A DNA stretch of 64,000 bases. Origin: Labyrinthula sp. Ha. Its lineage: Eukaryota > Sar > Bigyra > Labyrinthulida > Labyrinthulaceae. Shown in pieces: positions 7,383 to 64,000 of the stretch. The stretch lies in contig JAALGZ010000063.1 of assembly GCA_015227615.1 (NCBI GenBank), forward strand, positions 82,178 to 146,177. Reading direction: 5' to 3'. Under the pieces are notes generated by a model. The model did not search any database. It saw only the letters and a list, made by a program, of their open reading frames with translations, and was not told the DNA's origin. The position numbers and the translations under genes were made by a program. Every line of letters starts with the position of its first letter. Positions within the stretch are counted from its first letter, which is position 1.

Positions 7383-7387
7383 TAGAC

Positions 7388-8617: not shown

Positions 8618-8733
8618 TTTAAACCGATAAATCTAATGGTTATTAGCTAAAAAAATGAAGTTCTAAGATTATACTTTTTTCTTTAGAAGATAGTTTAATA
8701 TAAGGTATTAAATTATAGTACAATTTCTATGGT

Positions 8734-11700
8734 TTAACAGTTTGAAAAAGCAAGGCTAAGATTTCTTCTAGTATTTTCTTTTTCTTCTACCTTCATTGAA
8801 TTTTCTTCAGGCGAAGATTTTATCACTGAGACCTCAACTGGTTTCTGCGCATTTAGAGAAGACGATAGTCTTGTACTGCGTGTGGCGCTGCTTCCTCTTA
8901 CACTCCTCATGACACTTGCGAGTTCGGGAGTTTTTCTTAGCGAAGATTTTGTTGCACTTTCCAACCTTTCTAAGCGTTGCTTCGAGAACCTAGATGCAGA
9001 TTGAGGGTCGCGCCTAATAGAGGCAGAAAGCTTATCTCGCTCCCTTCTATTCTTTTTCTGTTGGACTACTTTTTCTCTATCTTTTTCTTCTTCAACATAT
9101 CTCTTAATCTCTTCGAGCATATGGTTTTTATTGAACTCAGGATATGCAATAATGGCTTCTTTCAATACTTCATAACACTCTTTGTACAAGAACACGAGAA
9201 AATTAATTACGTACTTCTGTAAACCTGATCTGCGTTTCTTCAAACCTAGAAAAAGCTTTAACGTAATTGGAATAGTGTGTCTCATCATAAGAATAGAAGC
9301 ATGTTTTGTCCAATAAGCCGCACTGACCTTCGCTTTCAGCTGAGTTTTTGTTTGTGCTACTTGATCTTCTTCCTCATCATCAGGTGTTCCCGATTGCGTT
9401 CCCTTCGCTTGCTTAAATAAATCCACAAATAACTCATTTTCCAACAACTTAAAAAGATCAATGAACAGCTGTTCCAGTCGTGGAGTAAATGGTTGGTATA
9501 CTTTTACTGGAGCCATTACCTTATTTCTTGTTAGATCTTCTGTGAACTCATTTGGAGGCTCATCTACATAAAACTCGAGAACGACGTCTTCGAATAAATT
9601 ACGAAGAATCTGAAACCTGCCTTTAGTGTCACAAGCGTAGAATAGGGTATCATATATATCTAACCTCCTGGATCTGGCATCACTTGTGTCAGCACATATC
9701 TCTCTCTCAATGAAACTTTCTCTAGCCCATACAATCAGGTTTTTCCTATCTTTTTCGGAGGCCCAGAAACTGGTTTCCTCATTGTCTGCACTCTTTATAA
9801 ATTTATTTTTCAAAGTTTGGCCATTTAGCGTAAACAAAATATCTAGAAACTCCTTTGCAATGACATCGACGTCTTTTTTTGCAAACACCCCATACACTGC
9901 TTGCAGAGCTTCTTTCTGAACCGAGTTATTCTTCTTCCACAATTTTTTCTTTATTAATTCCATTTTTCCTGAATGAGGAGTCGATCTTGAAGATGGCTTG
10001 TTTGAAAACGAAACTCGTTTCCGTTTTTCCTTTACACTCGGCGTCATTGCCTCAAATCTGTTTTCCGGGTTCTCCAAAAACTTATAGTAGTCTACTCCAG
10101 GATCCACAAGGTTAACAGCAAAACGTATTAGAACCTTATCATTTATCTTCAAGAAATCTTCCTGTATTAGTCGCCTAAAGGCCCAGAGGGCTGTTCCTCT
10201 TACCATGAAACTTGGATCATTGAGCGCTGTTAAGAAGTCATTCTGAGCATTGGAAACAAGAGTTGTATTTAAGCGACAAAGATCGTACAATATAGGTACC
10301 ATATTGTTGCGAATAATCTCATTTTGGCAATTATTGAGTTCATAAATGAACATCTTTACACAATCCGTAGCCAGTTTATGATCTGTAAGACACAATTTTC
10401 CTGTGGAAACGAAAGCATTTGCCCTGAGAGAAGGTGGAATGAAAGATATGTTCTGTCTCTTTTCGCCTCCCTTGAGATCCAGTGTAGGCGTAGTTGGAGC
10501 AGTCAAGAAACCCATAACCAACGTGATTAAATCTTCACGAATATGAATGGTTCTATCATTAGCACTAGCTATTGGATTATTAAGATCGAAGCCCAAGAGA
10601 CTGATGGCTCCAAAAGCAAAGACATTCCTACAGAGTTTTTGAATCACAAGGTTCTTGTCGAGAGCTTGATTAGTCTCTTGAGTTGCTGCAGGGTTTTCTT
10701 CCTCATCAACATTCTTATATATTTCATCTAGTAACTCTGAAGCCCAACTATGTTTCCCTTTAGATCCAGTTGCAACAATATCCTCTTTTAACCTGAATAG
10801 AGTATCAACTAATTTCTGAAGTACCGTATACCCAACAAAAGAAGAGGAATCATCTAGAATTCTCAGGTTGTTACAAATACTGTCATAAAATTGTCGTATT
10901 AGGGTTTGCCTTTGCAGGTCATCAAGTCTTGGAGAAAGATTTAGAAACAAATCAAGAAGAGTACAGGTAATATCAGCCTTCAGATTTGGTGAGACATCGG
11001 CTAGACAATCATATAGAACGCTGCGAACAAAAACCTTCTCCCAGCTGTTGGCCAAGAAGTCTAGGTCAAAGTTGCTTCTCCATGTCTCGACACATTCCTT
11101 TACATTAATTGGAGTGGTAGGTCTTAAGTCAAAGCTACACACAACACCAAAAAGCTTCCATGAAATTTTAAATATCATTTTAGCATATTTAATCGTCTGA
11201 TCCTCATCATCGTCCAATATGTGAAGCATGCTGTTAAAAAATGAGTTAAAGTTACCCTCATCTAGGAAGTTCTGAAGGGCTTTGAATATACTCATGTGAT
11301 CAGTATGATCTGTAATAACGTAGACTAGTGATACGAAGTGGTCCTTTCCAACCGAACTAAGCATCTTCCAGACAGAAAAACTTCTTATTAGATCAGTTTG
11401 ATCAATGTGATCGGAATTTTTTTGGTAAAATTCGCTTTGAAACTGAAGTATCCCATCAAGAAAGATGTTTTTCAAAGCTTTTCTGGACCTAGTAGCAACT
11501 GATTCTTCCGGATCGTTGAAATGTTGTAGGAGTACACCCAGAGATTTCTTGTGCAAGATATTCAGGTGTCTTTCTTCAACAAGCAGCCTAGACACAGTTT
11601 CGTTTACAGCATTTCTTATGGCGACAGATTCATCACTTCTTCTTTGACAAATAAAATGTAGGATTTGATGCCATTTTTTCCCATCTATGGCGAAGAATGT

Positions 11701-13483
11701 GTGATAATGTTTGCGGAAGTATTTATCTAGTAGAAGACTTTGGCAGCATTTAATAGCGTTCCTTCTCACAACTGGTCTCTCGTCATCAAAGCACAAGATA
11801 ATTTTTTTCAATATCTTTCGGCAAAACAAACGACAGAAATCTTCCTTTCTCTCTTGGTTTAATTGGCCATCTCCAGCGGTAAAGAAAACAGCAAGTCTTT
11901 CTAAGTTCTTTATTGCCGCTACTCGAACACTGGGAGACTCATCAACAACTCTTAAATCGCAAAAGTCAACAAGTTGCTTTACATGGCTTGGGTCTAGATT
12001 CACATTTACTAGCATCAATATTTCAGCACTGAGTTCGGCCCCAAACGCTCTGAACCAAATCTTTTTAGCAAAAGATAGACGCTCCAAGAACTCCATTAAT
12101 TCTAAGAAAAAATTAGCTGAAGTCGATTCTTGAACTAGACAATAATCTAGAAATTTTGCTGTAATTTTCAGCAGCATTGACCTTTGATCTGTTTTTTCCA
12201 TTGCACTCAAACACCATCCTTGAACGCTATACAGCTTAAACAATTGAGGATCAAGTTGGAGCGAAGGTAAATTACTGGTCTTTTCACATTTACCTTTCTT
12301 AGTACTCTCCTCACCTTCACTTTCTTCCATTTCTTCATTGTCCCCCTGAACCCGATCTTCCTCTTCACTAGAGTCATAATCTACTCCAAATGCTTTTTGG
12401 CTCTCCCAGACTTTTAGTTTCTCTTTGACTATCTTTTTGTTAACCTTTAGTTCTACCAGATTCTGCAACACTTCCAAAATACAGTCATTTACACCACTAA
12501 CCTTCCGAACATCTATCAAGTACGTACCAGACTTTGATTTTAAACATGCTTCAATATTTTCAGTAATTTTAAGCATAGACAAACAGCCGAGTGAAGAGAG
12601 AAAATTATGATGCGCATTATCCAATGCAAAATCCAACAATTTCTTACCGATATTATCATTGTTCTCTTCAAAGAAATATATCCCATGGAGATTAAGCAAA
12701 GTAAAAATATTTTCTTGAACTTCTGTTCTTTCTGTTTCTTCAACTTTGTCGTTCTCTGCAAATAGTAAGTTAAATACTCTTGGCTTAGAGAGCAACTCAG
12801 ATAAGATTTCGCCTGCTCTTAAGGTATTTGTTGCCTGAAGCTTTGCATTTTTTCTGCTCTTGCTAGGTTCGAAATAAGAATTGGAAAATTTATCAAATAT
12901 TTTTCTGATTTTGGAAAGATAAACAATAGAGAACATCCGAAATTTGAACGCATTCTGCTGTTTCAACATCTGCAGGTAAAGAAAAGCCGCATCACCTAGG
13001 GTGTCTTTGCAATATGATTTCCCATCTGGGCCATATCCAGATAAAATAAACCCAAAAAATAATCTTAAGAAGTCCTTCTGTATATCCACTTTAATTTCTA
13101 CGTTCACTTGAACATCCTCTCGCTGAACAGAAACAAATATATCTCTGTGAAACAGCTCCTCAAAAAAACAACTCTGGTGTTTTTCCGAGTATTGCAATAC
13201 ACTAGTTAAACCTTTCAATACCATTTGTACTTTTTCTTCATTAAATTCATGCTCTTCAGTTGTTTCAAGATTTTGTCGGTTTGCATTATCAGGCTTTAGA
13301 ATTTCATGAAATTCATCTGCAGAAAGTATCTCCCTTGCTTTAGATTTAAGCTCATCCGCGTCTATTTTATCTCCTAGAAAATAAGAGAAACTAAGGTTTG
13401 CTACCAGATATGAATTCTGTGATTATTGGAGCGAGTAGATATAATGTGAGGGCAACGGTTTCTTGTGTTGTTGTTTCTTCCAT
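8734..13483 (-). CDS. NCAPD3: Condensin-II complex subunit D3-like HEAT-repeat protein
   Basis: Non-SMC HEAT subunit that helps condensin II compact mitotic chromosomes in the nucleus. A 79-nt first exon (13483-13405) is joined across a 31-nt intron (13404-13374, GTAGCA...TTCTAG) to exon 2 (13373-8734). This gives 1572 residues, 76 more than the ATG at 13224 would allow. HEAT repeats run throughout. The conserved Cnd1 block around residues 1010-1110 contains KLCL, IIRNN, and RGTALWAFRRLIQEDF followed by RFAVNLVD; it matches the D3 pattern (KLCL, VRNN, LLQEEF, FRFVSTLID) better than D2. The segment near 1400-1460, with EEIKRYVEEEKDREK, also resembles D3. An acidic linker lies near residue 365, and the C-terminal 110 residues are basic and Ser/Arg-rich, as in the regulated tails of the family. 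D2 remains a weaker alternative. Confidence 0.8.
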
Positions 13484-16400
13484 TTGATATGTCCTTGAGA
13501 AATTGTTGAGTATCACAGTATGTTGTCATTTTGGGCAGAATCTCATTCCAAGTAGCTTAGATTGAATAGGGACATTGGGTAGGGTTTATTATCGGAATTA
13601 CCGTTAACTTTCGGGGAAAATCTTCAAATTTTGCTTAACGTTAACTACTGGTAAAGGAATCCTTAACGGATACTGAATTTTACGGAAATTACGTATATAA
13701 CGATTATCACGATATCTTTTGGTGTTTAAAAAATCTTTTAACAATTAAATATTTTGTTCTAAATTATATCTTTATAATATATTATATTTATATTCTTTTT
13801 CTAAAGGAATAAAATTGAAACAAAAGCTGAATCAGAAGCAAATTAAACAAAGAATAAACATCATTCGGAAGCTATTTGAAATGAAAATCATCTCATAACT
13901 ACTACCCTTACCTTTGGAATTAACTCGATCTAAGCTCAAACTGAGCTCCTATAGAATAGCAAATATTCCAGAATCTTTTCTAGATAATGTTAAGGAACTA
14001 GTTGTACTCTCTGATAGAAAGTGCAACTGGGAAAATACCTTGCCCAAAACGAATTTTTTTCACAACAATCAAACAGAAATGAACGTATCTTCACTTCAAC
14101 CTTTTTCAGAAAATTTAACATGGACTAATCTAAAATTATGCTCAAGAAAAATTATTTTATAATCATCTTAGTTTATCTGGTCAGGTTTTCCCTTTTTTTT
14201 CTAATCTTAGCATTTCTCCTAATAATCAAATATGTCTCAGATTTTTTAGTTACGTAAAACCTCCAAAAAATTAAGGACAACGAGTTTTAAAACTTTTTCT
14301 ACCAAGTGATTATTTTTTCCTGGTCAGAAATTATGCGTATATTCATTGTCACCAAATTTTTGTTCACGCTAGGAATTTTTCGTGGACTTCTTTGGTTTTG
14401 TCTTTAACCAGGTAGAAAAAAATTCGGATTTGTTGAAGACGACCAAGCATATCTGTACGTACTGCTAGGTTTCCTGTTCATTGTGAACTCTGTTAACTTC
14501 ACGATTACTCAATTTAACGATACGGCTAAAATTTTACTTACCGTTAACTATCGTTATTCACGAAACCATAAGAAAACCTAACAGAGGATATTATTTATCT
14601 AGCTTAGGATTCTAAAAGCGACTCTAATCTAATTGCTCGAATTATCTCATTGGTTAGACTAAGTAAACAAAAGTATAATTCACAAATAAGTAAAAGAAAA
14701 AAGTGAACCAGAAAGAGAAGATATCGCGGTGAGCCACATGACTAACTAGAATATAAGGAAAATCAGTAGTGTATATATATATGAGAAGAAAAGGAACCCA
14801 GACAATATACATACAACTTCAAACCTTACAAATAATGATCTATAATCAGTCAAGAGGCGTTCTAGGATAGAGGCGTTCTAGGATAAAGTCGTTATGAACT
14901 CTTGAGTATTAGAGGTAACCATGTACAATTGTAACTAACAAGACCGTATCCAAGAACTTTGGGCTAACTAGAACAACTAGTAGAGGGGAGATGTATATAT
15001 ACATTTTAGCTGTACATTGAACAAAACATTTAACCCTTGTTAATATCAGCTTCAATATCATGTGGATTATATGGGCTCAGCAGTATTCATGTTAGTACTG
15101 TAAACAAAAAAAGCAATACAAGAGTTAGAACTTGTTTTAATCAGGAATAGAACGACTTGAAATAAATATTTTAAATACAAGAACACTGTTTACTTTTATA
15201 TTTAAACCCCAAATCGTGTATGAAGTGATATAAAAGAAAATAACTCATTCATGAGTGCGGCTTCGAAAGTTACAGCTTCACCAATAAAAGAAAATCAAAA
15301 GAAAAAATACTAAGAATGTTTAACTTGGCATAGCTTAGCTCCTTACAGGAGATGATACGTTTTTACTTATGCGGAAAGATTGTAACATTCTTTGTCATAC
15401 TTATGAATTCATTGACAAAATTAATACCGGGTGAAAAATAGTTAGAATATCCTTCTAACATATCAAGAAAGCAGTTCTAATTAAATAACAAAAATCCCTG
15501 ATCTCTTTGTGCTTGAATAATAAAATTTCCAAGAGTCAGAGTTTAAGTGAAATAATCCAGTGGAACTGTCGAACTAATACTTTAAACCCTGTGTAAAATT
15601 AAAATGATAGATCTTGGGCCTATGTTGGCAGTAGAAATAGTTTCGAACAGGAACTCCTAACGATAAGAAAGCGACTTGTAAGTTCTACAAGTTATCTGGA
15701 TGTACCAAATCATTGCAAAAGTTGAGAGAAGTAGCTGTGGTTGTTAAAAACCCAAGAGTTATTGCGCCTGAGATTATGATATATTAACTGATATATTTTG
15801 CTAAGAATTTTAATTTTCCGCTCTTTAAGCAGAAATTGTTATCTTATTTAGCAGATCAGAAGGCATTTGATATATATTTTGGCCTGCATTGGCCATTCTT
15901 ATAAACATATGGTCCTGTATTCAAGATCCGTTGCAACTAAGAGCGATGTTTGACTGAAATATGAAAAACTTAGTACACGTATAATTGAGTGAATAGTACA
16001 GATCTAGAGCAACATCATACTTTAGCGAAAGGTTATTAGACAGATAAAACACGTTTCTGGTTCATCTAAAAAGTATGAAAAAACTGCTGAATTGACTTCA
16101 TAAAGCTTGCACTAGGAAAGCATAGCTAATAGATATTATTTTCTCTGCGGTTCCAGTGGATAAACATATGCATATTAATTGAAAGGGAAAAGGACGAGTT
16201 AAATCTATTTAATACTTATTAACCTGTTTTGATATAAGAGAAAGGAAAAATTGATGGAGAAAGAGATTTACCTAAGAAACTTTTTACTGAAGAGTAGTTC
16301 TCGAGTTGCTTATCTTTCCTTGTAAGTGCAAGTATTAGCCATCTCGGTGGCCTCATTGTTCTCTAAGTAGCAAAAATAATCACAGTTCTCTTCTGTTGAG

Positions 16401-17798
16401 GTTCTTGAATGAAAATATTGAACAAAAACACACTTTCATAATACTTTGTACAGAGGTGCAACAAGCCATGCAGAATTTGTCATAAGAAGAACCAACACTA
16501 TTTTCTAATTCAATATATGACCAATTATCTAAGTTAGGAATGAAAGAACAGATACATAACGTTTTATATCTAATTGAAATAAATATTGGAAATTTATATA
16601 GCTTGCTGAAAACACCGTTTTCATACCTAAAATCAAATCGAAAATACTAAGTAGTTTGCTCTTATGACACTATAGAGAGTGTATATCTAGAAAGTTCACC
16701 TCGCATTATGCTGGACAAGTAGCTTTGAAGGAATTTAGCATCTAAAAAAATCTTATAATTTCTTTTAATTGAGCTCAATACGAAAATCTAAGCTAAATCC
16801 AACTTAGTATCTGCATTTGCACTTCAACTTTATCAGGTTGCATTAGAAAGATATAGGTGCATTTGTGGTTCAACGCTCTGTTTGATTTGATTGGCTCAGC
16901 CTCTGCAGGTATATTTCCTCTTTAAAACCGTTAAGATTATGCACATCTATGCTAATAGAGTTTTTGAATTTAAGCTGGTTTCCTTCGAAATAATTATTAC
17001 TACAGTTTTCAGAGCTCTTTGCCTCTTAAGAAATGTCTTTCCTCTGTTCTCATTAACTACCATTAACCACTTTACTGCGCTTTGGGACTTCCCAGAGGTC
17101 AACTGGAATAGTAACTACTTTGTCAGCTACTATCTAAATGTTGAAGAATAGGTTGATAACATTGAGTAAAGGCCCTGCAGAACAGTTGGAAGATTAAATG
17201 GATTAGCCTACTCTGATAGATCATTTTATGCAACCAAGGTTTTACCTTGTTTAAGTTGCCCTATGCTGCCAAAGTATAAAGTGCAGCCTCGAGTTTAAAA
17301 AATGAACTTTTACCATTTTCTTGAATGGGGGAATTCGAAGAGTGTTCAATTGTCTTGTGAACGCGTGAAAGGACAATCCCATATTAGTGGGAACAATTGC
17401 ACACAAAACAAAAAAGAAAGGATAATACAGTTGAAACATTACTAGACTCTTAAGCAATGTATTTATCTCAAGCCTATGAAGTCTCAGTCCTATTGGCCAT
17501 CTCGGCCTCGCTTCTGCTCCAAACCTAGACCTCGATTCAAAAGATGCATTTTGTGGGTTTTCAGCCGTAAATAGCTAGAAGAGTTGAAATTTTTCATTCG
17601 CCACTTTTTGTTCTGTTCATGTGTACAATGATTAAATATCCTTGTATTATAAGGTAAATCTGAAATAGAGATCTTTATTACATAAGATCAGTAAATAAAC
17701 TCAAACCATAGATACAATATAAAACAGAGTTTGCAATTTAATTATTGCTCAACTAAACAAAACTAACAATACTGAAACTTAACCATATCCGAAGACAA
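13484..17798. other. Intergenic region: condensin promoter and non-coding part of unit 1
   Basis: Bases 13484-13632 separate the condensin start from the array. The rest of unit 1 before the GTPase gene holds no convincing gene. Short frames at 13914-14162, 16891-17151 and 17251-17457 have counterparts in unit 2, but these differ by many amino-acid changes and stops, as expected for non-coding DNA. A phrase like the array start (ACTTACCGTTAACTA) recurs at 14536-14550. Confidence 0.55.
15189..15882. repeat. Near-identical 694-bp non-coding block, copy in unit 1
   Basis: Aligned base by base with 21976-22669, this block has equal length, no indel and three substitutions, all transitions (in the contexts GGAGATG/GGAAATG, AAATTAAT/AAATCAAT and GTTCTAA/GTTTTAA). 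Neighbouring non-coding sequence of the same units is far more diverged. No open frame of 60 codons or more lies in it on either strand. A recent gene-conversion tract, or a conserved non-coding RNA or regulatory element, would both fit. Confidence 0.85.
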
Positions 17799-19692
17799 CT
17801 AATTCGTGGTTCTTGTTCTGAATATATCCATAGTATTTTGCAGCCATGTCTTCTTTACTAACTTAAAACCTATTTTTTTTTCAGTAAGTAGAAACATATC
17901 AACAATTTTGTCAGGATTGAAAATAAATCTTGCAAAATATCGATATAATAAAATATCTCTTGGTTGATGTTCGTTTTTATATTGAAGGACTGCATTTAAG
18001 AACGTTGTCAAGCTAATTGGTTCATCAAATTCAATATAGTCCCCAGTTTCAGTTGATGGTTTAATTCTCATATCTTTTAAAACAGGAATTAATTCTGGAA
18101 CAATAAAACTTTCAGGTTTTTCATCATATTTTAATAAAATCATACTACTTAAAGCAACTTTCAAAACATATTCTCTTTCTTCCTTAGTATATTTTTTGAG
18201 AAGGACATTGAATAAAGTTTTTCTAATAATTCCAAAATCAATATATTTTCTATATTCAGGAAAAATCTCTGAATTCAACCTAAAAGCAAGTTGATGAAGA
18301 CTTGAATCTCGAATAAAGCTTCCTAAAGCTTGAGCTATATAGGAAGGTGCAAAAAATATAAAATTGGCTTCTTCAGATAACTCAAGATTATTGTGGTAGA
18401 AAATAATTCCTGCTCTTGAATAAATATCAAGCATATTGTCCAAATTTTCTTCTGTAAAGTTACAAAGTTTTCCTTTATTCTTGAAGTTTTTCACACTTAT
18501 ATAATTTGATTCTTCTCTACAATTATCTAAGAATAAAACCCAAACACAAGGTAAACTTAACTCAGTTGAAGCATATTTGGTAAGAAATGTATCTTCTTTT
18601 GTAAAGCTCTTAAGTTTTTCATGTATCTCAGAAATAGTATTAGAAGAAGGATTTGAGTTCTCAATAGGAAAAAAACTAATCTCCTCATTTTTTGGTACCT
18701 GAAAATCAGTAAAAGTTTCAGAAACAAGTTTAAAGACTTTTAATTCAGTTCTTTCTAGTTCCTCTTTTTCATTTTTCTTAAGAAACAGTTTTAAATAAGT
18801 TCCAATTAAAATAATAGGTGCTCTTGCAGCATTTTTGACAACACTTTTTAACCAAAATTTAAGTCTATTCATATCTGTGTTATTCTGTTTTGTTAAGTTA
18901 AATACAAGAACATAAACTGCATTTGGATTCATAAATAGATGGTGAAGAGAAGAAAAAACTTCTTGACCTCCAAAATCAGAAACACGATAGAAAGGGTTGT
19001 TTGATTTATAATCAGTGTCTCCATCTCTCGTAAACAGTTTTAGAAATTCTTCATCTTGAACAGTTCTTTCCAAAAGTTCTTTTTCAAAAGGAAGATTGAA
19101 TTTTGATGTATTTCCAACTCTGTCATCAAAATCATATTTAATAGCAAGAACGTTTTTCACTCTCTGCACACTAAGTTCATATTTAGTGAGAGGTTTTAAA
19201 TTATGTTTTTTTATTTCAAAAATATTTGCATCTTCTAAAACCAAAGTTGAAGAAATGTCTTTCATAAATCTTTTTTTACATAAACTTCTTATTGTTGAAG
19301 TTTTTCCAGTTTTACCATCACCCATAAATAATATTTGAAGTTCGTTCAAAGAGAGTTCTTCATCATATCTTTTTTGTAACATAGACTGAAGCATAGTATA
19401 AATATTTTTTTTATTTTTTATCTTTTTGTTTATTGTTTCCAAATATAAAAGTGAAGGATGTTTTTCAACTAGTTTTATCAAAGCTGTTTCAAAAACTTTA
19501 ATATCAAATAAGAGAAAACTAAAGAATAAACAAAATAAACAAAATAACTCAAAATAGCAAAGAGAAGAACTTCCCACCAGCAAATTTCTCACACCTTCAA
19601 TTATTGTTTTTTTCTTTTGATATTCTTTATAATTCGTCAACTCCCAAACACTAAAGTTTAAATAAAAGGTTTGTTTACATTAAGTATTTCAT
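17799..19692 (-). CDS. Roc-COR family GTPase with N-terminal membrane segment, copy 1
   Basis: Exon 1 (19692-19679, 14 nt) and exon 2 (19650-17799) flank a 28-nt intron (19678-19651, GTAAAC...TTTAG); 621 residues. Without the intron the frame has no ATG before codon 91. A hydrophobic stretch at about residues 34-55 looks like a membrane anchor. The Roc domain follows: P-loop GDGKTGKTS at 115-123 and DFGGQ at 230-234 (Roc DxxGQ). The guanine-specificity motif reads GTYLK near 288-292, where Roc proteins usually have THxD, so the specificity aspartate is missing. A COR-like domain covers about 370-600, with SLPCVWVLFL, the YSRAGIIFYH segment and FIVPELIP. No leucine-rich repeats, kinase or other effector domain is present. 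Compared with copy 2, a TAG replaces a Lys codon and removes the last seven residues. The GTPase call is firm; the biological role is unknown. Confidence 0.85.
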
Positions 19693-22600
19693 AGTATTAT
19701 TTTCTGATAGTGTTTGAAAAATAATTGATAACTCAGTTGCAGTGAATTTATTATTCCGAAACCTAAATATGAAATAAAAGAAAAATATACCTCCACTTTT
19801 CTACTTTTGTTCTCTTGCTTATAAACATATCAAAAGACTCAAAAGATATTATTTCACAGCGAGTAAAACTATAGTAAGTAAATAATAAGAAAATACTCTA
19901 TCTGTTTTAAGTTAGGAAATATTTTTGGTTTAGAAAGTATATTTAAATTATCACCATTTATTGAACAGTCAAAAAACCTATCTTAAAATAAGGACAAAAA
20001 ATACAACAAGTCATCAACTGCTGGAAAAGAATTTAATAACCTTTCAAAATGTTCTTTTAGAACAAAAAGTGGACAATAATAAAACCTATATTCTTTGAGA
20101 AGGAAATATCTTACGCTAAGCTAGTTATCTCCTTATTCACTTTCATATTTTGGAGAAAAGTTTTGATTACCTTGTTGAACTTTTCTGACTCAGTTTCTTT
20201 TCTACTCGACCTTATAATAATCTTATTCAAAATATATACCACCTAATCTCAAATTCATTGGTATACTTCCTTTCTTCATATTGTTTTAGTATAAATTTTT
20301 CATCATATTTCATCTTTATTTTTGTTCTTTTTTGACACAAAAAATTATTTTACTGAAACTTTTTCGATTAATTAGTTTAAAATATAAAAATATACTAAAT
20401 TAAAACCAATAAAATAATTATTAGTTTTTTCTTATTGAGCTTAACGTTAACTACTGGTAAAGAAATTCTTAACGGATACTGAATTTTACTTAAATTACGT
20501 TTATAACGATATTCACGATATTTTTTTGTGTTTTCAAAATCTTTTAACAATTAAATATTTTGTTCTAAATTATATCTTTATAATATATTATATTTATATT
20601 CTTTTTCTAAAGGAAAAAAATTGAAACGAAAGCTGAATCAGATGAAAATTAAACAAAGAATCAACATCATTTGCAAGTTTTTTTATATGAAAATCATCTC
20701 ATGACTACTACCCTTACCTTTGGAATTAACTCGATCTAAGCTCAAACTGAGCTCCTATAGAATAGCAAATATTCCAGAATCTTTTATAGACAATATCAAG
20801 GAACTAGTTGTACTCTCTGACAGAAAGTGCAACTGGGAAAATACCTTGCCCATAGCGAATTTTTTTCACAACAATCAAACAGAAATGAACGTATCTTCAC
20901 TTCAACCTTTTTCAGAAAATTTAGCATAGACTAATCTAAAATTATGCTCAAGAAAAATTGTTTTATAATCAACTTAGTTTATCTGGTCAGGTTTTTCCTT
21001 TTTTTCCTAATCTTAGCATTTCTCCTAATAATCAAACATGTCTCTTAGACTTTTTAGCTACGTAAAACCTTCAAAAAATTAAGGACAACTAGTTTTGAAA
21101 CTTTTTCTACCAAGTGATTAATTTTTCCTGGTCAGAAACTATGCGTATATTCATTGTCACTAAATTTTTGTTCACGCTAGGAGTTTTTTGTGGAATTCTT
21201 TTGATTTTTGCTGTAAACAGGTAGAAAAAATTTCGGATTTGTTTAAGTCGACCAAGCATATCGGTGCGTACTGTTAGGTTTCTTGTTCATTGTGAACTCT
21301 GTTAACTTCACGATTACTCCGTTTAACGATACGGCTAAAATTTTGCTTACCGTTAACTATCGTTATTCACGAAACCATAAGAAAACCTAACAGAGGATAT
21401 TATTTATCTAGCTTAGGATTCTAAAGGCAATTCTAATCTTATTGTTCCAATTATTTCATTGGTTAGACTAAGTAGACAAAAATATGATTCACAAATAAGT
21501 AAAAGAAAAAAGTAAACCAGAAAAAGAATATATCACGGTGAGCCACATGACTAACTAGAATATAAGGAAAACCAGTAGTCTACATATATGAGAAGAAACT
21601 CAATTCCGAGAATATGCACGCAATTTCAAAGCTTAAAAATAATCATTTATAATCAGTCAAGAGGTGTTCTACGATAAAACCGTTATGAACTCTTGAGTAT
21701 TAGAGATAACCATGTAGAATTATGACTAGCTAAAATGTATCCGAGGGCAGTGAGTGAAAAAAAAAACTCGTAGAGGGAGATGTATATACTCTTTAGTCAT
21801 ACATTGAATATTATATTTATCCCTTGTTAGCCCCTGCTTCATTATCATGTGAATTAAATGGGCTCAGCAGTATTCATGTTAGTACTGTAAACAAGGACAG
21901 TAAAAGAGAAGCTAGAACATATTCTAATCAGGAATAGAACGATTTCAAATAAATATTTTAAATATAATAACACTATTTACTTTTATATTTAAACCCCAAA
22001 TCGTGTATGAAGTGATATAAAAGAAAATAACTCATTCATGAGTGCGGCTTCGAAAGTTACAGCTTCACCAATAAAAGAAAATCAAAAGAAAAAATACTAA
22101 GAATGTTTAACTTGGCATAGCTTAGCTCCTTACAGGAAATGATACGTTTTTACTTATGCGGAAAGATTGTAACATTCTTTGTCATACTTATGAATTCATT
22201 GACAAAATCAATACCGGGTGAAAAATAGTTAGAATATCCTTCTAACATATCAAGAAAGCAGTTTTAATTAAATAACAAAAATCCCTGATCTCTTTGTGCT
22301 TGAATAATAAAATTTCCAAGAGTCAGAGTTTAAGTGAAATAATCCAGTGGAACTGTCGAACTAATACTTTAAACCCTGTGTAAAATTAAAATGATAGATC
22401 TTGGGCCTATGTTGGCAGTAGAAATAGTTTCGAACAGGAACTCCTAACGATAAGAAAGCGACTTGTAAGTTCTACAAGTTATCTGGATGTACCAAATCAT
22501 TGCAAAAGTTGAGAGAAGTAGCTGTGGTTGTTAAAAACCCAAGAGTTATTGCGCCTGAGATTATGATATATTAACTGATATATTTTGCTAAGAATTTTAA

Positions 22601-24564
22601 TTTTCCGCTCTTTAAGCAGAAATTGTTATCTTATTTAGCAGATCAGAAGGCATTTGATATATATTTTGGTCTACGTTGGCCTTTCTTGTAAATATTTTGC
22701 CCTGTATTCAAGATCCGTTGCAACTAAGAGTGATGTTTGACTGAAATATGGGAAACTTAGTACACATACAATTGAGTGAGTGGTACTGATTTAAAGCAAT
22801 AACATACCTTAGCGGAACATTTCTAGACATATGAGAGGCATTTTTAGCTCATCTAAAAAGTATACAAAAACTACTTAATTAGATTTATAGAGCTTACAAT
22901 AGGTAAGCATAGCAAACAGATATTTTTTTCTGTGCGGTTCCAATATATAAACATATGCATATTAATTGAAAGAGAAAAGGATGATTTAATTCTGCTTAAT
23001 ACTTATTAACCTATTTTGATACAAGAGCAAGCAGCCATTGATGCAGAAAGCGACTTGCCCCAATTTTTTTTTACTCAAGAGTAGCTATCTAGCCGCTCAT
23101 CATTGCTTGCAAGTGCCAGCTCTTGCATCTTGGTAGCTTCATCGTTCTCTAAATAGTAAAAAATAAGCACAGTTCTCTTCTGTTGAGGTTCTTGAATGAA
23201 AATATTGAACAAAAACACACTTTCATAATACTTTGTATTGAGGTGCAACAAGCCATGCAGAATTAGTCATAAGAAGAATCAACACTATTTTCTAATTCAA
23301 TATATGACCAATTATCTAAGTTAGGAGTGAAAGAACAGGTACATGGCGTTTTATATCTAGTTGTAATAAATATTGGAAATGTATATCACTTGATGAAAAC
23401 ACCATTTTCATACCTAAACCCAAATCGAAAATACACTGTAACTTGTGAATATGACACTATAGAGAGTGTATATCTAGAAAGTTCACCTCGCATTATGCTG
23501 GACAAGTAGCTTTGAAGGAATTTAGCATCTAAAAAAATCTTATAGTTTCTTTTAATTGAGCTCAATACGAAAATCCAAGCTAAATCCAACTTAGTATCTG
23601 CATTTGCACTTCAACTTTATCAGGTTGCATTAGAAAGATATAGGTGCATTTGTGGTTCAACACTCTGTTTGATTTGATTGGCTCAGCCTCTGCAGGTATA
23701 TTTCCTCTTTAAAACCGTTAAGATTATGCACATCTATGCTAATAGAGTTTTTGAATTTAAGATGGTTTCCTTCAAGATAATTATTACTACAGTTTTCAGA
23801 GCTATTTTTCTCTTAAGAACCGTGTTACCTCTGTTCTCATTAAATACCATTAACCACTCTACTACGTTCTGTGACTTCCCAAAGGTCAACTGGGATAGTA
23901 ACTATTTAGTCAGCTACTAACTAGCTGTTGAAGACTACGTTAATAACATTGAGTAAGGTCCATGCAGAACAGTTGAAAGGTTAAATGGATTTGCCTACAC
24001 TGATAGATCATTTTATACAACTAAGGTCTTACCTTGTTTAAATGGCCCTACGCTGCGAAAGTATAAAATGCAGCCTCGAATATAAGACCTGAATTTTTAG
24101 CATTTTTTTGAATGTTGGAATTTGAAGAGTGTTCAATTGTCTTGGGAATGCGTGAAAGGGGAATCCCATATTAATGGGAGCAATTGCACAAAAAACAAAA
24201 AAGAAAGGATAGTACAGTTGAAACATTACTAGACTCTTAAGCAATGTATTTATCTGGGGCCTATGAAGTCTCAATTTTATTAGCCGTCTCGGCCTCGTTT
24301 CTGCTCCAAACCTAGACCTCGAATAAAAAAATACATTTTGTGGGTTTTCATCCGTAAAAAGCTAGTATACTTGCAAATTCTCATTCTCCACTTTCTGTTC
24401 TGTTCATATGCCCAATGATTAAATATCCTTGTATTATAAGGTAAATCTGAAACACAAATATTTATTACATAAGATCAGTAAATAAACTCAAACCATAGAT
24501 ACAATATAAAACAGATTTTGCAAGTGAATTATTGCTCAACTGAATAAAATTAACAATACTCAAA
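19693..24564. other. Non-coding DNA between the two Roc-COR genes
   Basis: Contains the 5' flank of copy 1 (19693-20438), the unit boundary at 20439, the near-identical block 21976-22669 and the 3' flank of copy 2. A phrase like the unit start (GCTTACCGTTAACTA) recurs at 21345-21359. No convincing gene was found on either strand; the short frames at 20720-20929, 23678-23920 and 24038-24274 are counterparts of those in unit 1 and are not conserved as protein. Confidence 0.55.
21976..22669. repeat. Near-identical 694-bp non-coding block, copy in unit 2
   Basis: Partner of 15189-15882. The edges are sharp: mismatches resume immediately on both sides, at 21975 and 22670. Confidence 0.85.
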
Positions 24565-26479
24565 CTAAACCATGTCAGAAGACAACTTATCCTTGAATGT
24601 TGTGTTTAATACTTCCATTGTATTTTGCAGCCATGTCTTCTTTACCAATTTTAAACCAAGTTTTTTTTCACTTAGTAAAAACATATCAACAATTTTCTCG
24701 GGATTGAAAATAAATCTTGCAAAATATCGATATAACAAAATATCTTTTGGTTGATGTTCATTTTTGTATTCAAGGACTGCATTTAAAAAGGTTATCAAGG
24801 TAATTGGCTTTTCAAATTCCAAATAGTCTTCAGTATTTTTTGAAGGTCTAATTCTCCTATCTTTTAAAACAGGAATTAATTCTGGAACAATAAAACTTTC
24901 TGCTTTTTCATCATATTTTAATAAAATCATACTACTTAAAGCAACTTTCAAAACATATTCTCTTTCTTCTTTAGTATAATCTCTGAGAAGGAAATTGAAT
25001 AAAGTTTTTCTTATTATTCCAAAATCAATATATTTTCTATATTCAGGAAAAATCTCAGAATTCAACCTAAAAGCAAGTTGATGAAGACTTGAATCCCGAA
25101 TAAAACTTCCTAAAGCTTGAGCTATATAGGAAGGTGCAAAAAATATAAAATTAGTTTCTTCAGACAACTCAAGGTTTTTATGGTAGAAAATAATTCCTGC
25201 TCTTGAATAGATCTGCAGCATATTTTCAATATCTTCTTCTGGAAAGTTACAAAGTTTTCCTTTAATCTTGAAGTTTTTCACACTTGTATAATTTGATTCT
25301 TCTCTACAATTATCCAAGAATAAAACCCAAACACAAGGTAAGCTTAACTCAGTTGAAACATAGTTGGTAAAAAATGTATCTTCTTCTGCAAAGCTCTTAA
25401 GTTTGTCATGTATCTCAGAAAGAGTTTTAGAAGAAGGATTTGAATTCTCAATAGGAAAAAAACTATTCTTCTCATTTTTTGGTACCTGAAAATCAGTAAA
25501 AGCTTCAGAAACAAGTTTAAAGACTTTTAATTCAGTTTTCTCTAGTTCATGTTTTTCATTTTTCTTAAGAAATAGTTTAAAATAAGTTCCAATTAAAATA
25601 ATAGGTGCTCTTGGAGCATTTTTGACAACACTTTTTAACCAGAACTTAAGTCTATTCATATCTTTGTTATTTTGTTTTGTTAAGTTAAATACAACAACAT
25701 AAACTGCATTTTGATTCATAAATAAATGATGAAGAGAAGAAAAAACTTCTTGACCTCCAAAATCAGAAACACGATAGAAAGGGTTGTTTGATTTATAATC
25801 AGTGTTCCAATCTCTCGTAAACAGTTTTAGAAATTCTTCATCTTGAACAGTTCTTTCCAAAAGTTCTTTTTCAAAAGGAAGATTGTATTTTGATGTATTT
25901 CCAACTCTGTCATCAAAATCATATTCAATAGCAAGAACGTTTTTCACTCTCTGCACACTAAGTTCATATTTAGTGAGATGTTTTAGTTTGTCTTCTTCGA
26001 TTTCAAAAATATTTGTATCTTCTAAAACCAAAGTTGAAGAAATATTATTTATAAATCTTTTTTTACATAAACTTCTTATTGTTGAAGTTTTTCCAGTTTT
26101 ACCATCTCCCATAAATATTAGTTGAAGTTCGTTCAAAGAGAGTTCTTGATCATATCTTTTTTGTAACATAGATTGAACCATAATATAAATATTTTTTTTA
26201 TTTTTTATCTTTTTGTTTATTGTTTTCAAATATAAAAGTGAAGGATGTTTTTCAACTAGTTTTACCACAGCTGTTTCAAAATCTTTAATATCAAATAAGT
26301 CAAACCTAAAAAATGAATAAAATAAACAAAATAACCTGAAATAGCAAAGAGAAGGACTTCCGAGAAGTAACTGTTTCACACCTCCAATTATTGCTTTTTT
26401 CTCTTGATATTCTTTATAATTCGTCGACTCCCAAACACTAAAGTTTAACTAAAAGGTTTGTTTACAATAAGTATTTCAT
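24565..26479 (-). CDS. Roc-COR family GTPase with N-terminal membrane segment, copy 2
   Basis: Paralogue of the gene at 17799-19692, with the same structure: exon 1 of 14 nt (26479-26466), a 28-nt intron (26465-26438) and exon 2 (26437-24565); 628 residues. The two proteins align without a single indel over 621 codons although the surrounding DNA has indels, which implies selection on both as proteins. P-loop GDGKTGKTS and DFGGQ are kept; the specificity motif is GTYFK, again without Asp. Substitutions cluster in the membrane segment, in surface-like charged stretches (for example KKHNLK versus EEDKLK) and at the C-terminus, which here ends DKLSSDMV. The 3n+2 first exon and the intron are conserved, supporting the gene model. 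Confidence 0.85.
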
Positions 26480-27225
26480 AGTATTATTTTCTGATAGTGT
26501 TTGAAAAATAATTGATAACTCAGCTACAGTGAAATTATTATTTTCAATCCTAAATATGAAATAGAAGAAAAATATACGTCCACTCTTCAACTTTTGTTCT
26601 CTTGCTTATAAACATATCAAAAGACTTAAAAGATATTATTTCACACCTATAAAAACTATAGTAAATAAATATTAAAAAAATACTATATCTTTTTTAACTT
26701 AGGAAATATTTTTTGTTTAGAAAGTATATTAAGAGTATCATCATTTATTGAACAGTGGCGAAACCTATCTTAAAATAAGGACAAAAAATACTCCAAGTAA
26801 TCAACTGCTGGAAATAAATTTAATAATCTTTCAAATTCTTCTTTCAGAAGAAAAAGTGGACAATAAATAAACCTATATTCTTTGAGAAGGAAACATCTTA
26901 CTTTAACCTAGTTATCTCCTTATTCACTTTCATATTTTGGAGAAAAGTTTTGATTGCTTTGTTGAACATTTCTGACTCATCTATGACACTACCCGACCTT
27001 ATAATAACCAAATTGAAAATATATACCACTTAATACTAAAATTATTGGTTTCATATCTTCCTTCATATTGTTTTAGTATAGATTTTTCATCATATGTCAT
27101 CTTTGTTTTTGTTCTTTTTTGACACAAAAAATTATTTTACTGAAACTTTTTCGATTAATTAGTTTAAAATATAAAAATATACTAAATTAAAACCAATAAA
27201 ATGATTATTAGTTTTTTCTTATTGA

Positions 27226-27715
27226 GCTTAACGTTAACTACTGGTAAAGAAATTCTTAACGGATACTGAATCTTACGGAAATTACCGTTTATAACGATAT
27301 TCACGATATCTTTTTGTGTTTTCAAAATCTTTTAACAATTAAATATTTTGTTCTAAATTATATCTTTATAATATATTATATTTATATTCTTTCTCTAAAG
27401 GAATAAAATTGAAACAAAAGCTGCCTTAGATCAAAATAAAACAAAGAATCAACATCATTTGCAAGTTATTTGATATGAAAAACTTCTCATGACTACTACC
27501 CTTAGCCTTGAAGTTATCTCGATCCAATCTCAAAATAAGCTCCTAGAGGTTAATGAAATATTCCAAAATCTTTTCAGAAAATTTTAAGGAACTAGTTGTA
27601 CTATATGATAGAAAATACAACTGAAAAAATAGAGGAAATACCTTGCCCATAGCGATTTTTTTTCATAATCATGAAATAGAAACGACGTATCTTCGCTTCA
27701 ACTTTTTTTCAGAAA
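27226..27715. repeat. Tandem array unit 3, truncated
   Basis: About 490 bp matching the beginning of units 1 and 2, from the GCTTAACGTTAACTACTGG start through the segment resembling 20700-20920. It is more diverged and carries small indels. Similarity fades near 27715, so this is the broken right end of the array and no gene is preserved. Confidence 0.8.
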
Positions 27716-30700
27716 AACCAGATTACACCATTGGAAAAATATTTTACTTTCCCAGCTACTCCTGAAAGAGAGTTCAGTTTTTTATAAAGTTAATCACGGA
27801 TTTGTACGGTCTAATATCCGAAAATCAAAGCAAGACTTCACATAACAATACTTGCGGCAGAAAAGTTCATATTTCAGAGTTTACATTTAATCCTCTTAAA
27901 CCAAATAAAATACAAGGTTATTTAAAGCCTAATTCACAAATTTTCGTAGCTTTTTTTCTTTTCTTTATTGAGATATGCTATGATTGAACTACGTATTTTT
28001 ATATTTCCGGCCTACAATCTATTTTCAAGTGATATATTCTATATTTTCCTATCCAGCTAAATTCTAATTTAAAACAGTATTGCAACTAATTTAGCCTATC
28101 TTCAAAATCGAATCTAATAGGTGGGTTTCAAATTTTCCATATTTAGGCACAGGAAGGGATTTTTCTATTTCATTCTTTTCAGGTCTACCTGTATTCTTGG
28201 TGAATTACCAAATAATTGCAAAGCTTGTTCCTCAGTCAAAACTTCGAGTTAAAAAAGCTAAACTTAGTTGCGGAAAAATCTTTTAAATAATTCTCTGTTT
28301 ATATAAGATTTTAAAAGCTTTAAAACGGTTGATATTATGTACAGTACCAAATGCCACCAGAATATTGTTCTTTCCTTTTATAGCAACCAGAAAACAATGA
28401 AGAAACATGCTACACCACCTCTGTAAACTGTCACGGTTAGTTCCTATGTTTAAGCTAAACCTTGTAGTAAATAATAGTTTTTATGGTTTTTGTTATTACG
28501 TGGTGTTGGAAACTCTGTCAATGATTTTTTCAAAAATCCAGTATAATAGCCATATAATAAACAATACCTTTTCAGGTCTTGTATAAAGCTCAAAACCTAT
28601 TGTAAACTAAACTTAGAACTTACTCACATAAAAATTTATAGGATTAAAACAATATAAAGTATAAAAAAAACACGATTATTGAAAATAACACATATAGTAT
28701 TTGTTAGTTTTTGTCACGAAATCTTCCATGAATAAAATATTATCACCCACAATGTGTTTCAAATTGAAGAAAGTTTCCCAATCATATGTTTTTTCAAGGT
28801 ATTTGGTAAGGATGAGTACTTTAAACCCTAATAAAGGCTAATTTTAAGGGTCCGTTTCACTAAGTTTACAGATCTTTAAAAAAACATACATTCAAACGTA
28901 ACATCACGAAGAACAACACTATAGATGATCTAATTCTTCCCATACGCTAAGTATTTACTATATCTGACTTTTAAATTCATTTCTCAGGATTTTATTCTCT
29001 AGTTAATTGTAACTGAGCTAAACTTCACTCAGAAAAGTCAAATGTTGAAAATCTGCACATCAGAAAATACTAAATCACTTAGTTTTGCTATAATCCCTCA
29101 AATTTTTATACTAGGTAGCCTCAAAAAACAAAAAAACACGACATGTAACCTTTAGCTCAGTTCTTTAGGATATTTTTAATGTATTTTTTAAGAAAAGTCG
29201 ATATTGGGCTAAAATGCTATTTTGATAAACTTCGATCCGTGTAATACCTCAAGAAATACTCTCCTAGAGCCAAAACAGACCTCACCAGTCGAAAGAACGA
29301 ATGAATTTAGGTCTAAATATAAGTTTTTTGAAAATTGGAGTCCTGTCTACAGCCTTCCTAGAAATGAATCTTATTTCCAAGATTTGAGAAACTCTGAAAA
29401 GGATACTCTTAAATGTCAAATAGTCCTAAATGGGTGATACTAAGTGACAAAACATCCTGAGAAATGGTTATCACCTCAATACATGATTGATTTAGGGCTC
29501 CACCAAATTTGGTTCGAACAAACTCCAAGAACTTCCCTATTGAACTCGGCAATTGTTATTTCGCTTATTTTTGCTTTACTCCAAACTCAACTTTGAAATA
29601 GCCAAAACAGAGCTTCTATTAGTTCAAATATCAGTAAATTTAATTCTAACCTCATCTAAGACTATTAATTAGTAACTTAGGAAGGAAAAAAAAATAAATT
29701 TGAAGATTCTTGCTTTCAACTATACAAATCTCTGTCATATTGTTGCAAATTCCTATGTTAAAATATGTTTTTTTTTACATTTAAATATGTTTAAGTGCTC
29801 AAAAATACATATAAATTGGCATTGTGAAAGCAGTAATATATTAAAAACATCTACGCATTTAGTTTTTGAAAAAACCCGTAGTGTGGACACTTTACTTATG
29901 TATATAAGGTAACAAAGTGATATTCTTGTTCTTATAGGTTTAACTGCTTGCTCTTACTTTTATAAAGCGTGTTCATTGTAATTACAAAAAAAGAAAATTA
30001 TTGAGAGGTGTAAACCGTAGGAAATATAATATGCGGGAAACCCTTCATTTTCTTCTTCTTTGGGTTTCCTCTTACGTGGGTAGCCTTTGTCGGGTTTTCT
30101 TGTTTTTAGTTTACCTAAAACATAGTTGAACTAGACGAAACAAAACATTCTTATGCGCTATGAAAACACTAGACTTTGTTGCTTTCTTTTGGATATCCAA
30201 GTTTGTCCTTCTTCGCCATGTTTGTTGTTCAAACATGGCAACTTGTCCAATCTTCTCGTCTGTATTTGTCCACTGCAAACAGGGTGAGTTCTTTTTCAAA
30301 AGCCAACAACCAGGAAGGGATTTCCAATAGCTTATTTAATTTCCATGGCAGAAAAATATTTCTTGATTTCCACAAAGGCTCTATTGTGACTTCTGTAGCA
30401 ATAGAATAAAATACTTCTTGTTAACTTCCTATTCTTTTTCATTACTAGCATCACAGTACAAGAGAATTTAGTTTGAGAGTATATATTTCTACCATGGAAT
30501 GTCATTTGTTATATTTTAATTCCACATTCTTTTGTTTGTTTTCTCTCGGATTTCTATGTGGATGCACGGCGGATATTCTTATTGAAAACATGTCCTCAAA
30601 CTATACCACGGTATCATCATATTGGAATGATTTCGATAGTATATCCAACAGGAATCAATATCACTTTTAAGTCATCAATATATAATTTATCATTATCGAA

Positions 30701-63905: not shown

Positions 63906-64000
63906 TTGGTTCGACCGATTAATTTCTCCGACAGATCTTAACGGACACGGTGAAATTTCATATCTCGGGATTTTATTCGTATTATTTGAACCTATATTAT

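What the first reader, a model, noticed from the sequence alone, without database searches (positions are those of the whole stretch)
13633..27715. Tandem array of 6.8-kb units, each with an intact membrane-anchored Roc-COR gene
Two complete units and a broken third lie head to tail. Both genes keep a 14-nt first exon, a 28-nt intron and 621 alignable codons without an indel, so both appear to be under protein-level selection after duplication. The architecture (N-terminal hydrophobic segment, Roc, COR, nothing else) differs from LRRK2-type Roco proteins, which have LRRs and usually a kinase. This looks like a lineage-specific expanding family.
Basis: partly seen in the sequence, partly recalled or inferred. 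Interest (0 to 1): 0.72.

Follow-up and report, generated by a model that had tools for sequence, protein, structure and literature searches.

The report
Huge hypervariable LRR-GTPase gene family

Summary
The tandem array is real, but the gene model is wrong. Each Roc-COR gene starts 621 nt upstream of the proposed ATG. It has eight exons separated by seven GT-AG introns of 27-30 nt, all phase 2, roughly one leucine-rich repeat (LRR) per exon. The "14-nt first exon" is the tail of exon 6; the "hydrophobic anchor" is unspliced 30-nt intron 7. Both genes encode LRR-Roc-COR proteins of 771 and 778 aa. The genome holds at least 159 Roc loci with open frames of 400 aa or more, broken copies included. 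Across 16 intact close copies, dN/dS is 0.98 in the LRR part, 0.40 in Roc, 0.34 in COR; exposed LRR positions 1.94, buried 0.41. A second subfamily is hypervariable at the same positions, though its dN/dS of 1.30 is not significantly above 1. Copies are recombination mosaics. Best reading: an intracellular receptor-like LRR-ROCO repertoire resembling brown-algal candidate immune receptors, with over three times as many loci, ribonuclease-inhibitor-type LRRs and tiny introns. Function is inferred. No transcripts, usable fold model or organism name were available.

The parts
13633..20438 (.). tandem unit 1 (6806 bp)
20439..27225 (.). tandem unit 2 (6787 bp)
27226..29990 (.). 5' flank of gene 2; its first 491 bp (27226-27716) are the 'third copy'. 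From about 27659 it matches a dispersed repeat
17799..20313 (-). gene 1 (W1): LRR-Roc-COR, 8 exons, 771 aa, ATG at 20313
20240..20313 (-). gene 1 exon 1 (74 nt)
   Evidence: coordinates added up from exon and intron lengths
20115..20210 (-). gene 1 exon 2 (96 nt)
20005..20085 (-). gene 1 exon 3, LRR (81 nt)
19897..19977 (-). gene 1 exon 4, LRR (81 nt)
19791..19868 (-). gene 1 exon 5, LRR (78 nt)
19549..19650 (-). gene 1 exon 7, LRR (102 nt)
19519..19548 (-). gene 1 intron 7 (30 nt, frame stays open if retained): the supposed hydrophobic anchor
17799..19518 (-). gene 1 exon 8: last LRR, Roc (two-part match around an insertion), COR, stop
24565..27100 (-). gene 2 (W2): LRR-Roc-COR, 8 exons, 778 aa, ATG at 27100
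27027..27100 (-). gene 2 exon 1
   Evidence: same exon lengths as gene 1; no internal indel between the genes
26902..26997 (-). gene 2 exon 2
26792..26872 (-). gene 2 exon 3, LRR
26684..26764 (-). gene 2 exon 4, LRR
26578..26655 (-). gene 2 exon 5, LRR
26466..26549 (-). gene 2 exon 6, LRR
26336..26437 (-). gene 2 exon 7, LRR
24565..26305 (-). gene 2 exon 8: last LRR, Roc, COR region, stop
   Evidence: no COR-A match listed for this copy itself; aligned with copy 1
14127..17798 (.). downstream flank of gene 1, no coding potential recognised; its left end is shared with the dispersed repeat

Best explanation
The two genes are members of a very large LRR-Roc-COR (Roco) family. Shown by sequence: a seven-repeat, ribonuclease-inhibitor-type LRR domain with roughly one repeat per phase-2 exon, followed by a Roc domain and a COR domain; hypervariability concentrated at the exposed beta-strand positions of the LRRs; a conserved Roc-COR; and mosaicism between copies. 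Inferred: the proteins are intracellular recognition receptors. The LRR concave face binds variable ligands, and binding changes the nucleotide- and dimer-state of a shared Roc-COR switch, which signals through partners because no effector domain was found. Duplication by unequal crossing-over, recombination between copies that swaps LRR stretches, and diversifying selection on the exposed positions together generate the repertoire. The likeliest ligands are foreign (pathogens, symbionts or prey).
For: Gene model: 16 of the 18 full-length close copies are open end to end when spliced. Of 126 introns, 125 start GT and 124 end AG, with lengths 27-30 nt; all seven sites are phase 2. Shuffle control: 0 of 500 gave an open chain. 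Diverged paralogs give the same kind of layout: 12 of 16 subfamily-B upstream regions fitted a six-intron phase-2 model open, and a 13th (L034) is open with two extra units (alignment A1). LRR: a profile of the spliced N-terminus (10 sequences) finds ribonuclease inhibitor at 3.8e-6 for the whole sequence (best single stretch 0.031), then LRRC34, tropomodulin and leiomodin. Roc in 10 of 10 and COR-A in 8 of 10 members at E<=0.01. Selection: LRR part 0.98, Roc 0.40, COR 0.34 (16 copies); exposed sites 1.94 (0.5% of codon bootstraps with pN-pS at or below zero), buried 0.41, entropy 1.97 against 0.67 (0 of 20,000 permutations). Subfamily B, same mask: entropy 2.09 against 0.94 (0 of 20,000). Six of seven introns (divergence 0.014-0.086) differ less between copies than any LRR exon (0.108-0.172); intron 1 is 0.121. 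Recombination: PHI 0 of 1000 permutations (15 copies); L035 and L037 are 76-86% identical in exons 1-3 but 98.7-100% in exons 4-6 and 100% in introns 3-6. No hydrophobic stretch: in 16 of 16 spliced proteins the first 60 residues peak at 0.49 or less and the whole protein at 1.47 or less (Kyte-Doolittle, 19 aa), so probably cytosolic.
Against: No transcript or protein data; splicing is inferred. Pfam finds no LRR family over its cut-off in the spliced protein or in the 10 N-terminal parts (one member has a weak LRR_At5g56370 match, E 0.11). In subfamily B the exposed-site dN/dS of 1.30 is not significantly above 1 (7.35% of bootstraps at or below zero). In subfamily A ratios for single LRR positions are unstable: x5 gives 4.47, but offsets outside the mask with almost no synonymous change give 12.15 and 16.24, so only the pooled mask and the entropies carry weight. 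Synonymous divergence is also raised at exposed sites (0.32 against 0.14), so recombination and multi-base codon changes add to the signal. The mask was fixed after I had seen per-residue entropies of subfamily A. The G4 motif lacks its Asp in 27 of 27 family rows, so normal GTP specificity is uncertain. Ligand, output and organism are unknown. LRR exon number was constant within the 18 close copies.
Confidence: 0.62

Rival explanations
1. Allorecognition or mating: the same hypervariable LRR-Roco repertoire marks or reads self (mate, fusion or kin recognition) rather than foreign organisms.
For: Hypervariable exposed positions, mosaic copies and large copy number fit any recognition system.
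Against: No hydrophobic N-terminus or membrane-type stretch in 16 of 16 spliced proteins, which fits intracellular sensing better than surface recognition.
Confidence: 0.15
2. Membrane-anchored Roc-COR proteins without LRRs, at least as an isoform in which intron 7 is retained.
For: Retaining intron 7 keeps the frame open in 16 of 16 copies tested (L023 and L025 left out) and adds 10 mostly hydrophobic residues.
Against: Even with retention only 8 of 15 copies reach a Kyte-Doolittle mean of 1.6, and W2 reaches 1.3. The homologous insert in L029 and L030 breaks the frame (read by eye). Upstream exons are conserved in frame in diverged paralogs.
Confidence: 0.04
3. The variable LRR part is merely relaxed and decaying; the copies are debris of repeat-driven segmental duplication.
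For: Whole LRR-part dN/dS is close to 1; repeat pieces flank the copies; some copies are broken (L014, L025, and the fragments L027, L031, L033) and many subfamily-B rows hold stops.
Against: Buried LRR positions are constrained (0.41; 0.38 in subfamily B), pooled exposed ones exceed 1 in subfamily A, and frames and splice sites are kept in 16 of 18 copies.
Confidence: 0.12
4. The Roc-COR units are cargo of a mobile element that spreads them.
For: The flanks belong to a repeat with 45 listed matches from 409 first-look candidates, one copy of which spans a hAT-dimerisation-like fragment (E 0.0011, 19.1 bits, cut-off 21.4).
Against: I recognised no target-site duplication at the boundaries printed, and one search found no inverted repeats of 200 bp or more in the window. 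By eye, most of the 45 listed repeat matches are not beside a listed Roc gene (both lists are capped). Copies share long flanks like segmental duplications.
Confidence: 0.07

Closest known systems
Brown-algal LRR-ROCO genes (Teng 2024, PMC11378527; Zambounis 2012 known only through it)
   Same: LRR-Roc-COR order with no kinase; one LRR per exon with phase-2 introns; variability at four concave-face positions with the spacing 14, 16, 18, 19, the same spacing as x3, x5, x7, x8 here; proposed as immune receptors.
   Different: 72-bp exons with 23-aa LRRs there, 78-84 nt for the regular LRR exons and ribonuclease-inhibitor-type repeats here; 9-47 genes per species against at least 159 loci (broken copies included); 4-49 LRRs and alternative splicing there, seven repeats in the window subfamily; introns of 27-30 nt here.
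[quoted passage not shown]
   Same: Protist LRR family expanded by exon shuffling, overwhelmingly phase-2 introns.
   Different: No Roc-COR switch mentioned in the passages read; exons exactly 90 bp.
LRRK2 and bacterial LRR-Roc-COR proteins (Chlorobium tepidum Roco)
   Same: LRRK2 Roc is the best PDB match (4.3e-12) and the bacterial Roco entries also match; LRR-Roc-COR order in the bacterial form is recalled and is in PMC11378527.
   Different: No kinase; insertion between the P-loop and DFGGQE; G4 Asp missing; hypervariable LRRs.
Plant and animal NLR receptors (recalled, not tested)
   Same: Intracellular LRR sensor joined to a nucleotide-binding switch; large, diversifying families.
   Different: The switch is Roc-COR, not NB-ARC or NACHT.

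Membership tests
Roco proteins | Roc domain | tested here: met
   10 of 10 members at E<=0.01, best 3.3e-17; W1 59.3 bits, cut-off 27; PDB profile best match LRRK2 Roc 4.3e-12
Roco proteins | COR domain directly after Roc | tested here: met
   COR-A in 8 of 10 members at E<=0.01, best 1.1e-9; W1 itself 33.2 bits, under its 35.3 cut-off; W2 itself not listed at E<=1 but aligned without internal indel to W1
Roco proteins, LRR-Roc-COR class | N-terminal LRRs | tested here: met
   Profile of spliced N-termini: ribonuclease inhibitor 3.8e-6 and other LRR proteins; no Pfam LRR family over its cut-off
LRRK-type Roco | kinase domain after COR | tested here: not met
   No kinase family listed for either gene at E<=1 or the spliced gene 1
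Canonical Ras-like G domain | G1 P-loop and G3 DxxG | tested here: met
   GDGKTGKTST and DFGGQE in both window genes (rows L009 and L016)
Canonical Ras-like G domain | G4 motif with Asp (NKxD, or THxD in LRRK2; motif recalled) | tested here: not met
   27 of 27 family rows have Lys, Asn, Glu or Ser (GTYLK, GTFLN, GTYLE, GTYLS and the like) in place of Asp
Brown-algal shuffled LRR-ROCO receptors | one LRR per phase-2 exon | tested here: met
Brown-algal shuffled LRR-ROCO receptors | 72-bp exons encoding 23-aa LRRs | tested here: not met
   81, 81, 78 and 84 nt for the regular LRR exons
Brown-algal shuffled LRR-ROCO receptors | positive selection at concave-face LRR positions | tested here: inconclusive
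   Subfamily A pooled dN/dS 1.94, bootstrap 0.5%; subfamily B 1.30, bootstrap 7.35%, not significant
Brown-algal shuffled LRR-ROCO receptors | alternative splicing of LRR exons and stress-responsive expression | not testable with these tools
   no transcript data
   Spliced: 0 of 16 intact proteins with a 19-aa window at Kyte-Doolittle 1.6 or more

The most novel reading that the evidence does not exclude
A eukaryote with 28-nt introns has built, with a different LRR class from the brown algae, the largest ROCO repertoire that I found in print or here: an NLR-like intracellular receptor system in which single-LRR exons bounded by phase-2 introns are swapped between more than 150 loci, and which is variable at the same four concave-face positions as brown-algal ROCOs. 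Its switch has also lost the guanine-specifying Asp, so it may not be an ordinary GTPase.
Probability: 0.4. Interest if true: 0.8.

Novelty: new variant of a known kind. Interest (0 to 1): 0.62.

Why it matters
In the papers I saw, LRR-ROCOs as a diversified receptor repertoire are described only for brown algae, where at most 47 genes per species are reported and unicellular SAR relatives have four or fewer (PMC11378527). A further case with at least 159 loci, a different LRR class and the same hypervariable positions would suggest that Roc-COR is an evolvable receptor switch used repeatedly, as NB-ARC and NACHT are (recalled). Whether the source organism is itself a relative of brown algae is unknown. 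The family is also a warning for annotation: reading long frames alone turned an LRR receptor with 28-nt introns into an LRR-less membrane protein.

Tried and rejected
Structure: AlphaFold2 on gene 1 from a single sequence gave pLDDT 33, so it was not used and no fold search was run. Rfam: only one match at E<=1 in the window (E 0.6, a lncRNA model below its cut-off), so the idea that the non-coding part is rDNA was dropped. Viral contigs: four pattern matches, none a relative by tblastn (records near the window's own genome may be left out). Mobile element: no target-site duplication recognised; copies share flanks, so segmental duplication is preferred. Mikrocytos as source: rejected, its introns are 16-17 nt (PMC10245619, passages); the Ascetosporea paper (PMC11069148, passages) gave no match either. 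Organism: not identified; the SSU rRNA search did not complete, and literature searches by intron length (listings) did not name one. LRR by Pfam: no family over its cut-off; the PDB profile search settled it. Downstream 3.7 kb: 8 of 9 gaps between the two units are not multiples of three, so no second gene is proposed. The chain finder found no chain for L030, L032 and L036, chose an incomplete start for L034, and for L029 chose an intron 7 that I doubt; these models were not used for selection tests.
Full report
1. What is in the window. The window is contig C114:82178-146177 of a 50.8-Mb assembly of 153 contigs, not named; genes with spliceosomal introns make it eukaryotic. The tandem array is real: 13633-20919 aligns to 20439-27716 at 90.3% over 7.3 kb. 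Each unit holds one long open frame on the minus strand with a Roc match (59 and 60 bits, cut-off 27).

2. The gene model is different. Comparing the copies, I saw that the 14-nt "first exon" is preceded, in frame, by LRR-like sequence cut up by short GT-AG gaps. Splicing seven such gaps gives an open frame from an ATG at 20313 to the stop at 17799 (771 aa) and, with the same layout, from 27100 to 24565 (778 aa). All seven introns are phase 2. I modelled all 18 copies that match over nearly the full length at 81% identity or more (W1, W2 and 16 loci); 16 of 18 are open, and L014 and L025 are broken. Three further fragments (L027, L031, L033) were left out. Of 126 introns, 125 start GT, 124 end AG, and lengths are 27 (16), 28 (57), 29 (35) and 30 nt (18). 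Control: with everything before intron 7 dinucleotide-shuffled 500 times, no open phase-2 chain from an ATG at least 500 nt upstream entered exon 8; the real sequence gives one with seven introns. Between the two window genes the only gap is 21 nt at the 3' end.

3. The anchor is an intron. The hydrophobic segment is intron 7, 30 nt, which happens to keep the frame open if retained (16 of 16 copies tested, L023 and L025 left out; introns 1-6: 0 of 16). At the homologous site of the diverged copies L029 and L030 the GT-AG insert does not stay in frame (read by eye). Retained, 8 of 15 copies reach Kyte-Doolittle 1.6 over 19 residues, and W2 does not. Spliced, 0 of 16 intact proteins reaches it anywhere (highest 1.47), and the first 60 residues peak at 0.49. 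In 7 of 8 diverged paralogs examined a further 27-30-nt GT-AG insert lies inside the P-loop; removing it would restore an MGDG-type P-loop, and in L032 it carries an in-frame stop.

4. The N-terminus is an LRR domain. Exons 3-6 are 81, 81, 78 and 84 nt, each with one LxxLxFxxC-type repeat. Pfam finds no LRR family in the spliced protein; among ten N-terminal parts the only LRR match is one member at E 0.11. A profile of those ten parts finds, in the PDB, ribonuclease inhibitor at 3.8e-6 for the whole sequence (best single stretch 0.031), then LRRC34, tropomodulin and leiomodin; 10 of the 12 sequences listed to E=10 are LRR proteins (DRC5 counted as one from recall), the others being a chain labelled tubulin alpha-3 (0.075) and a ribonucleotide reductase subunit (2.3). 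Roc is found in 10 of 10 and COR-A in 8 of 10 members of an exon-8 alignment at E<=0.01; gene 2 by itself had no COR-A match at E<=1. The Roc match is in two parts around an insertion between the P-loop and DFGGQE. At the Asp of the G4 motif (NKxD or THxD, recalled) 27 of 27 family rows have Lys, Asn, Glu or Ser.

5. The family. The union (115 rows with frames of 400 aa or more, retyped; 151 matches, not all listed; 70 rows; 74 rows) gives 159 distinct loci with open frames of 400 aa or more on 60 contigs. This is a lower bound because only the best candidates are scored; it includes broken copies, and 18 loci with frames over 720 aa whose layout I did not study. The window type (18 copies plus fragments) and a second subfamily (50 rows at 54% or more to L035, itself included, many with stops) are 46-48% identical to each other.

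6. Selection. In 16 intact copies pooled dN/dS is 0.98 in the LRR part, 0.40 in Roc and 0.34 in COR, with similar dS (0.157, 0.166, 0.204). I set an LRR frame by motif and took the canonical exposed positions x3, x5, x7 and x8 of seven repeats; I had seen the per-residue entropies before fixing the mask, so the choice rests on general LRR knowledge (recalled) but was not blind. Exposed sites 1.94 (codon bootstrap of pN-pS at or below zero in 0.5%), LRR part without them 0.72, buried positions 0.41; mean entropy 1.97 against 0.67, 0 of 20,000 permutations; shifting the mask by one residue drops it to 0.59 or 0.80, by two to 1.53 or 1.19. Ratios for single positions are unstable: x5 gives 4.47, but offsets -4 and +12, which have almost no synonymous change, give 12.15 and 16.24. 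The independent test is subfamily B: I fetched 12 further upstream regions and used four in hand (16); 12 were used, and L062, L065, L068 (no clean model) and L034 (extra LRR units) were dropped. The same mask gives entropy 2.09 against 0.94, 0 of 20,000; dN/dS 1.30 exposed, 0.51 rest, 0.38 buried; here pN is not significantly above pS (7.35%). dS is also raised at exposed sites in subfamily A (0.32 against 0.14), so recombination with diverged copies and multi-base codon changes contribute. Six of seven introns (0.014-0.086) differ less between copies than any LRR exon (0.108-0.172); intron 1 is 0.121, its inner part 0.178.

7. Recombination. PHI on 15 copies (L023 dropped as nearly identical to L024): observed 0.515, permuted mean 0.647, 0 of 1000; the nearest relative often changes from exon to exon. 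L035 and L037 differ in exons 1-3 (76, 83 and 86% identical) but are 98.7-100% identical in exons 4-6 and 100% in introns 3-6. L034 has two extra LRR-like units in the exon-2 region.

8. How the copies spread. Window 27659-29990, a spacer and the left end of the downstream flank (from 14127) occur together as one repeat in L059, where the spacer holds a hAT-dimerisation-like fragment (E 0.0011, below cut-off). The 27230-30000 stretch has 45 listed matches from 409 first-look candidates. I infer that copies of this repeat flank Roc genes and gave sites for unequal crossing-over; the window tandem arose after a junction joined about 27716 to 14127. I recognised no target-site duplication.

9. 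Comparison. The closest published case is brown-algal LRR-ROCOs (PMC11378527: abstract, first part of Results, the section on exon shuffling, first part of Discussion): one LRR per phase-2 exon, positive selection at sites 14, 16, 18 and 19 on the concave face, 9-47 genes per species, at most four in unicellular SAR relatives. The spacing of those four sites equals x3, x5, x7, x8; my mask was set before I read that section, though I had read in the abstract and Discussion that diversifying selection on LRRs was claimed. Exon length and LRR class differ, so I call this the same kind of system, not a member of that gene group. Tetrahymena has LRR genes with 90-bp phase-2 exons (PMC6564038, passages). 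Literature searches (listings only) showed no other large LRR-ROCO repertoire; the library is partial.

10. Verdict. Architecture (LRR-Roc-COR with tiny introns) about 0.95. Recognition-receptor function 0.62, of which foreign ligands are the likeliest. Not shown: transcription, structure, nucleotide binding, ligand, organism, and whether the family is specific to this lineage.

Noticed in passing
window 27659-29990; L059:1669-5392: Non-coding repeat with 45 listed matches in the genome (409 first-look candidates), whose copy in L059 spans a hAT-transposase-like fragment (Dimer_Tnp_hAT E 0.0011, below cut-off).
   Followed up: partly
gene 1 and gene 2 exon 8 and paralogs: The Asp of the G4 guanine-specificity motif is replaced (Lys, Asn, Glu or Ser) in 27 of 27 family rows, while G1 and G3 are kept; base specificity may be altered.
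   Followed up: partly
gene 1 residues about 290-370 and paralogs: Insertion between the P-loop and DFGGQE with a strongly conserved core (KPLTKYxLSVQRVKN), interrupting the Roc match.
   Followed up: no
gene 1 19519-19548, gene 2 26306-26335 and paralogs: Intron 7 is 30 nt and stop-free in 16 of 16 copies tested, unlike introns 1-6; retention would add 10 mostly hydrophobic residues.
   Followed up: partly
L029, L032, L034-L038: An additional 27-30-nt GT-AG insert sits inside the P-loop codons of these diverged paralogs and is absent from the window genes.
   Followed up: partly
L034: Two extra LRR-like exon/intron units in the exon-2 region: probable LRR exon duplication.
   Followed up: partly
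L023 and L024 (C64:46413 and C64:54881): Two copies 8.5 kb apart whose first 260 predicted residues are identical, probably a recent duplication.
   Followed up: no
window 36900-39525: Fragments that look like a non-LTR retrotransposon (endonuclease-RT domain, E 1.9e-4, below cut-off, at 37029-37439).
   Followed up: no
window 41249-54067: Single uninterrupted 4272-aa ORF full of armadillo-type repeats (ARMC5 model, E 2.4e-67).
   Followed up: no
window 5181-13422 and 54138-63998: Ordinary-looking neighbours: WD40 protein, O-fucosyltransferase-like protein, condensin-subunit-like HEAT protein (Cnd1 match below cut-off), aminotransferase and ABC transporter.
   Followed up: partly
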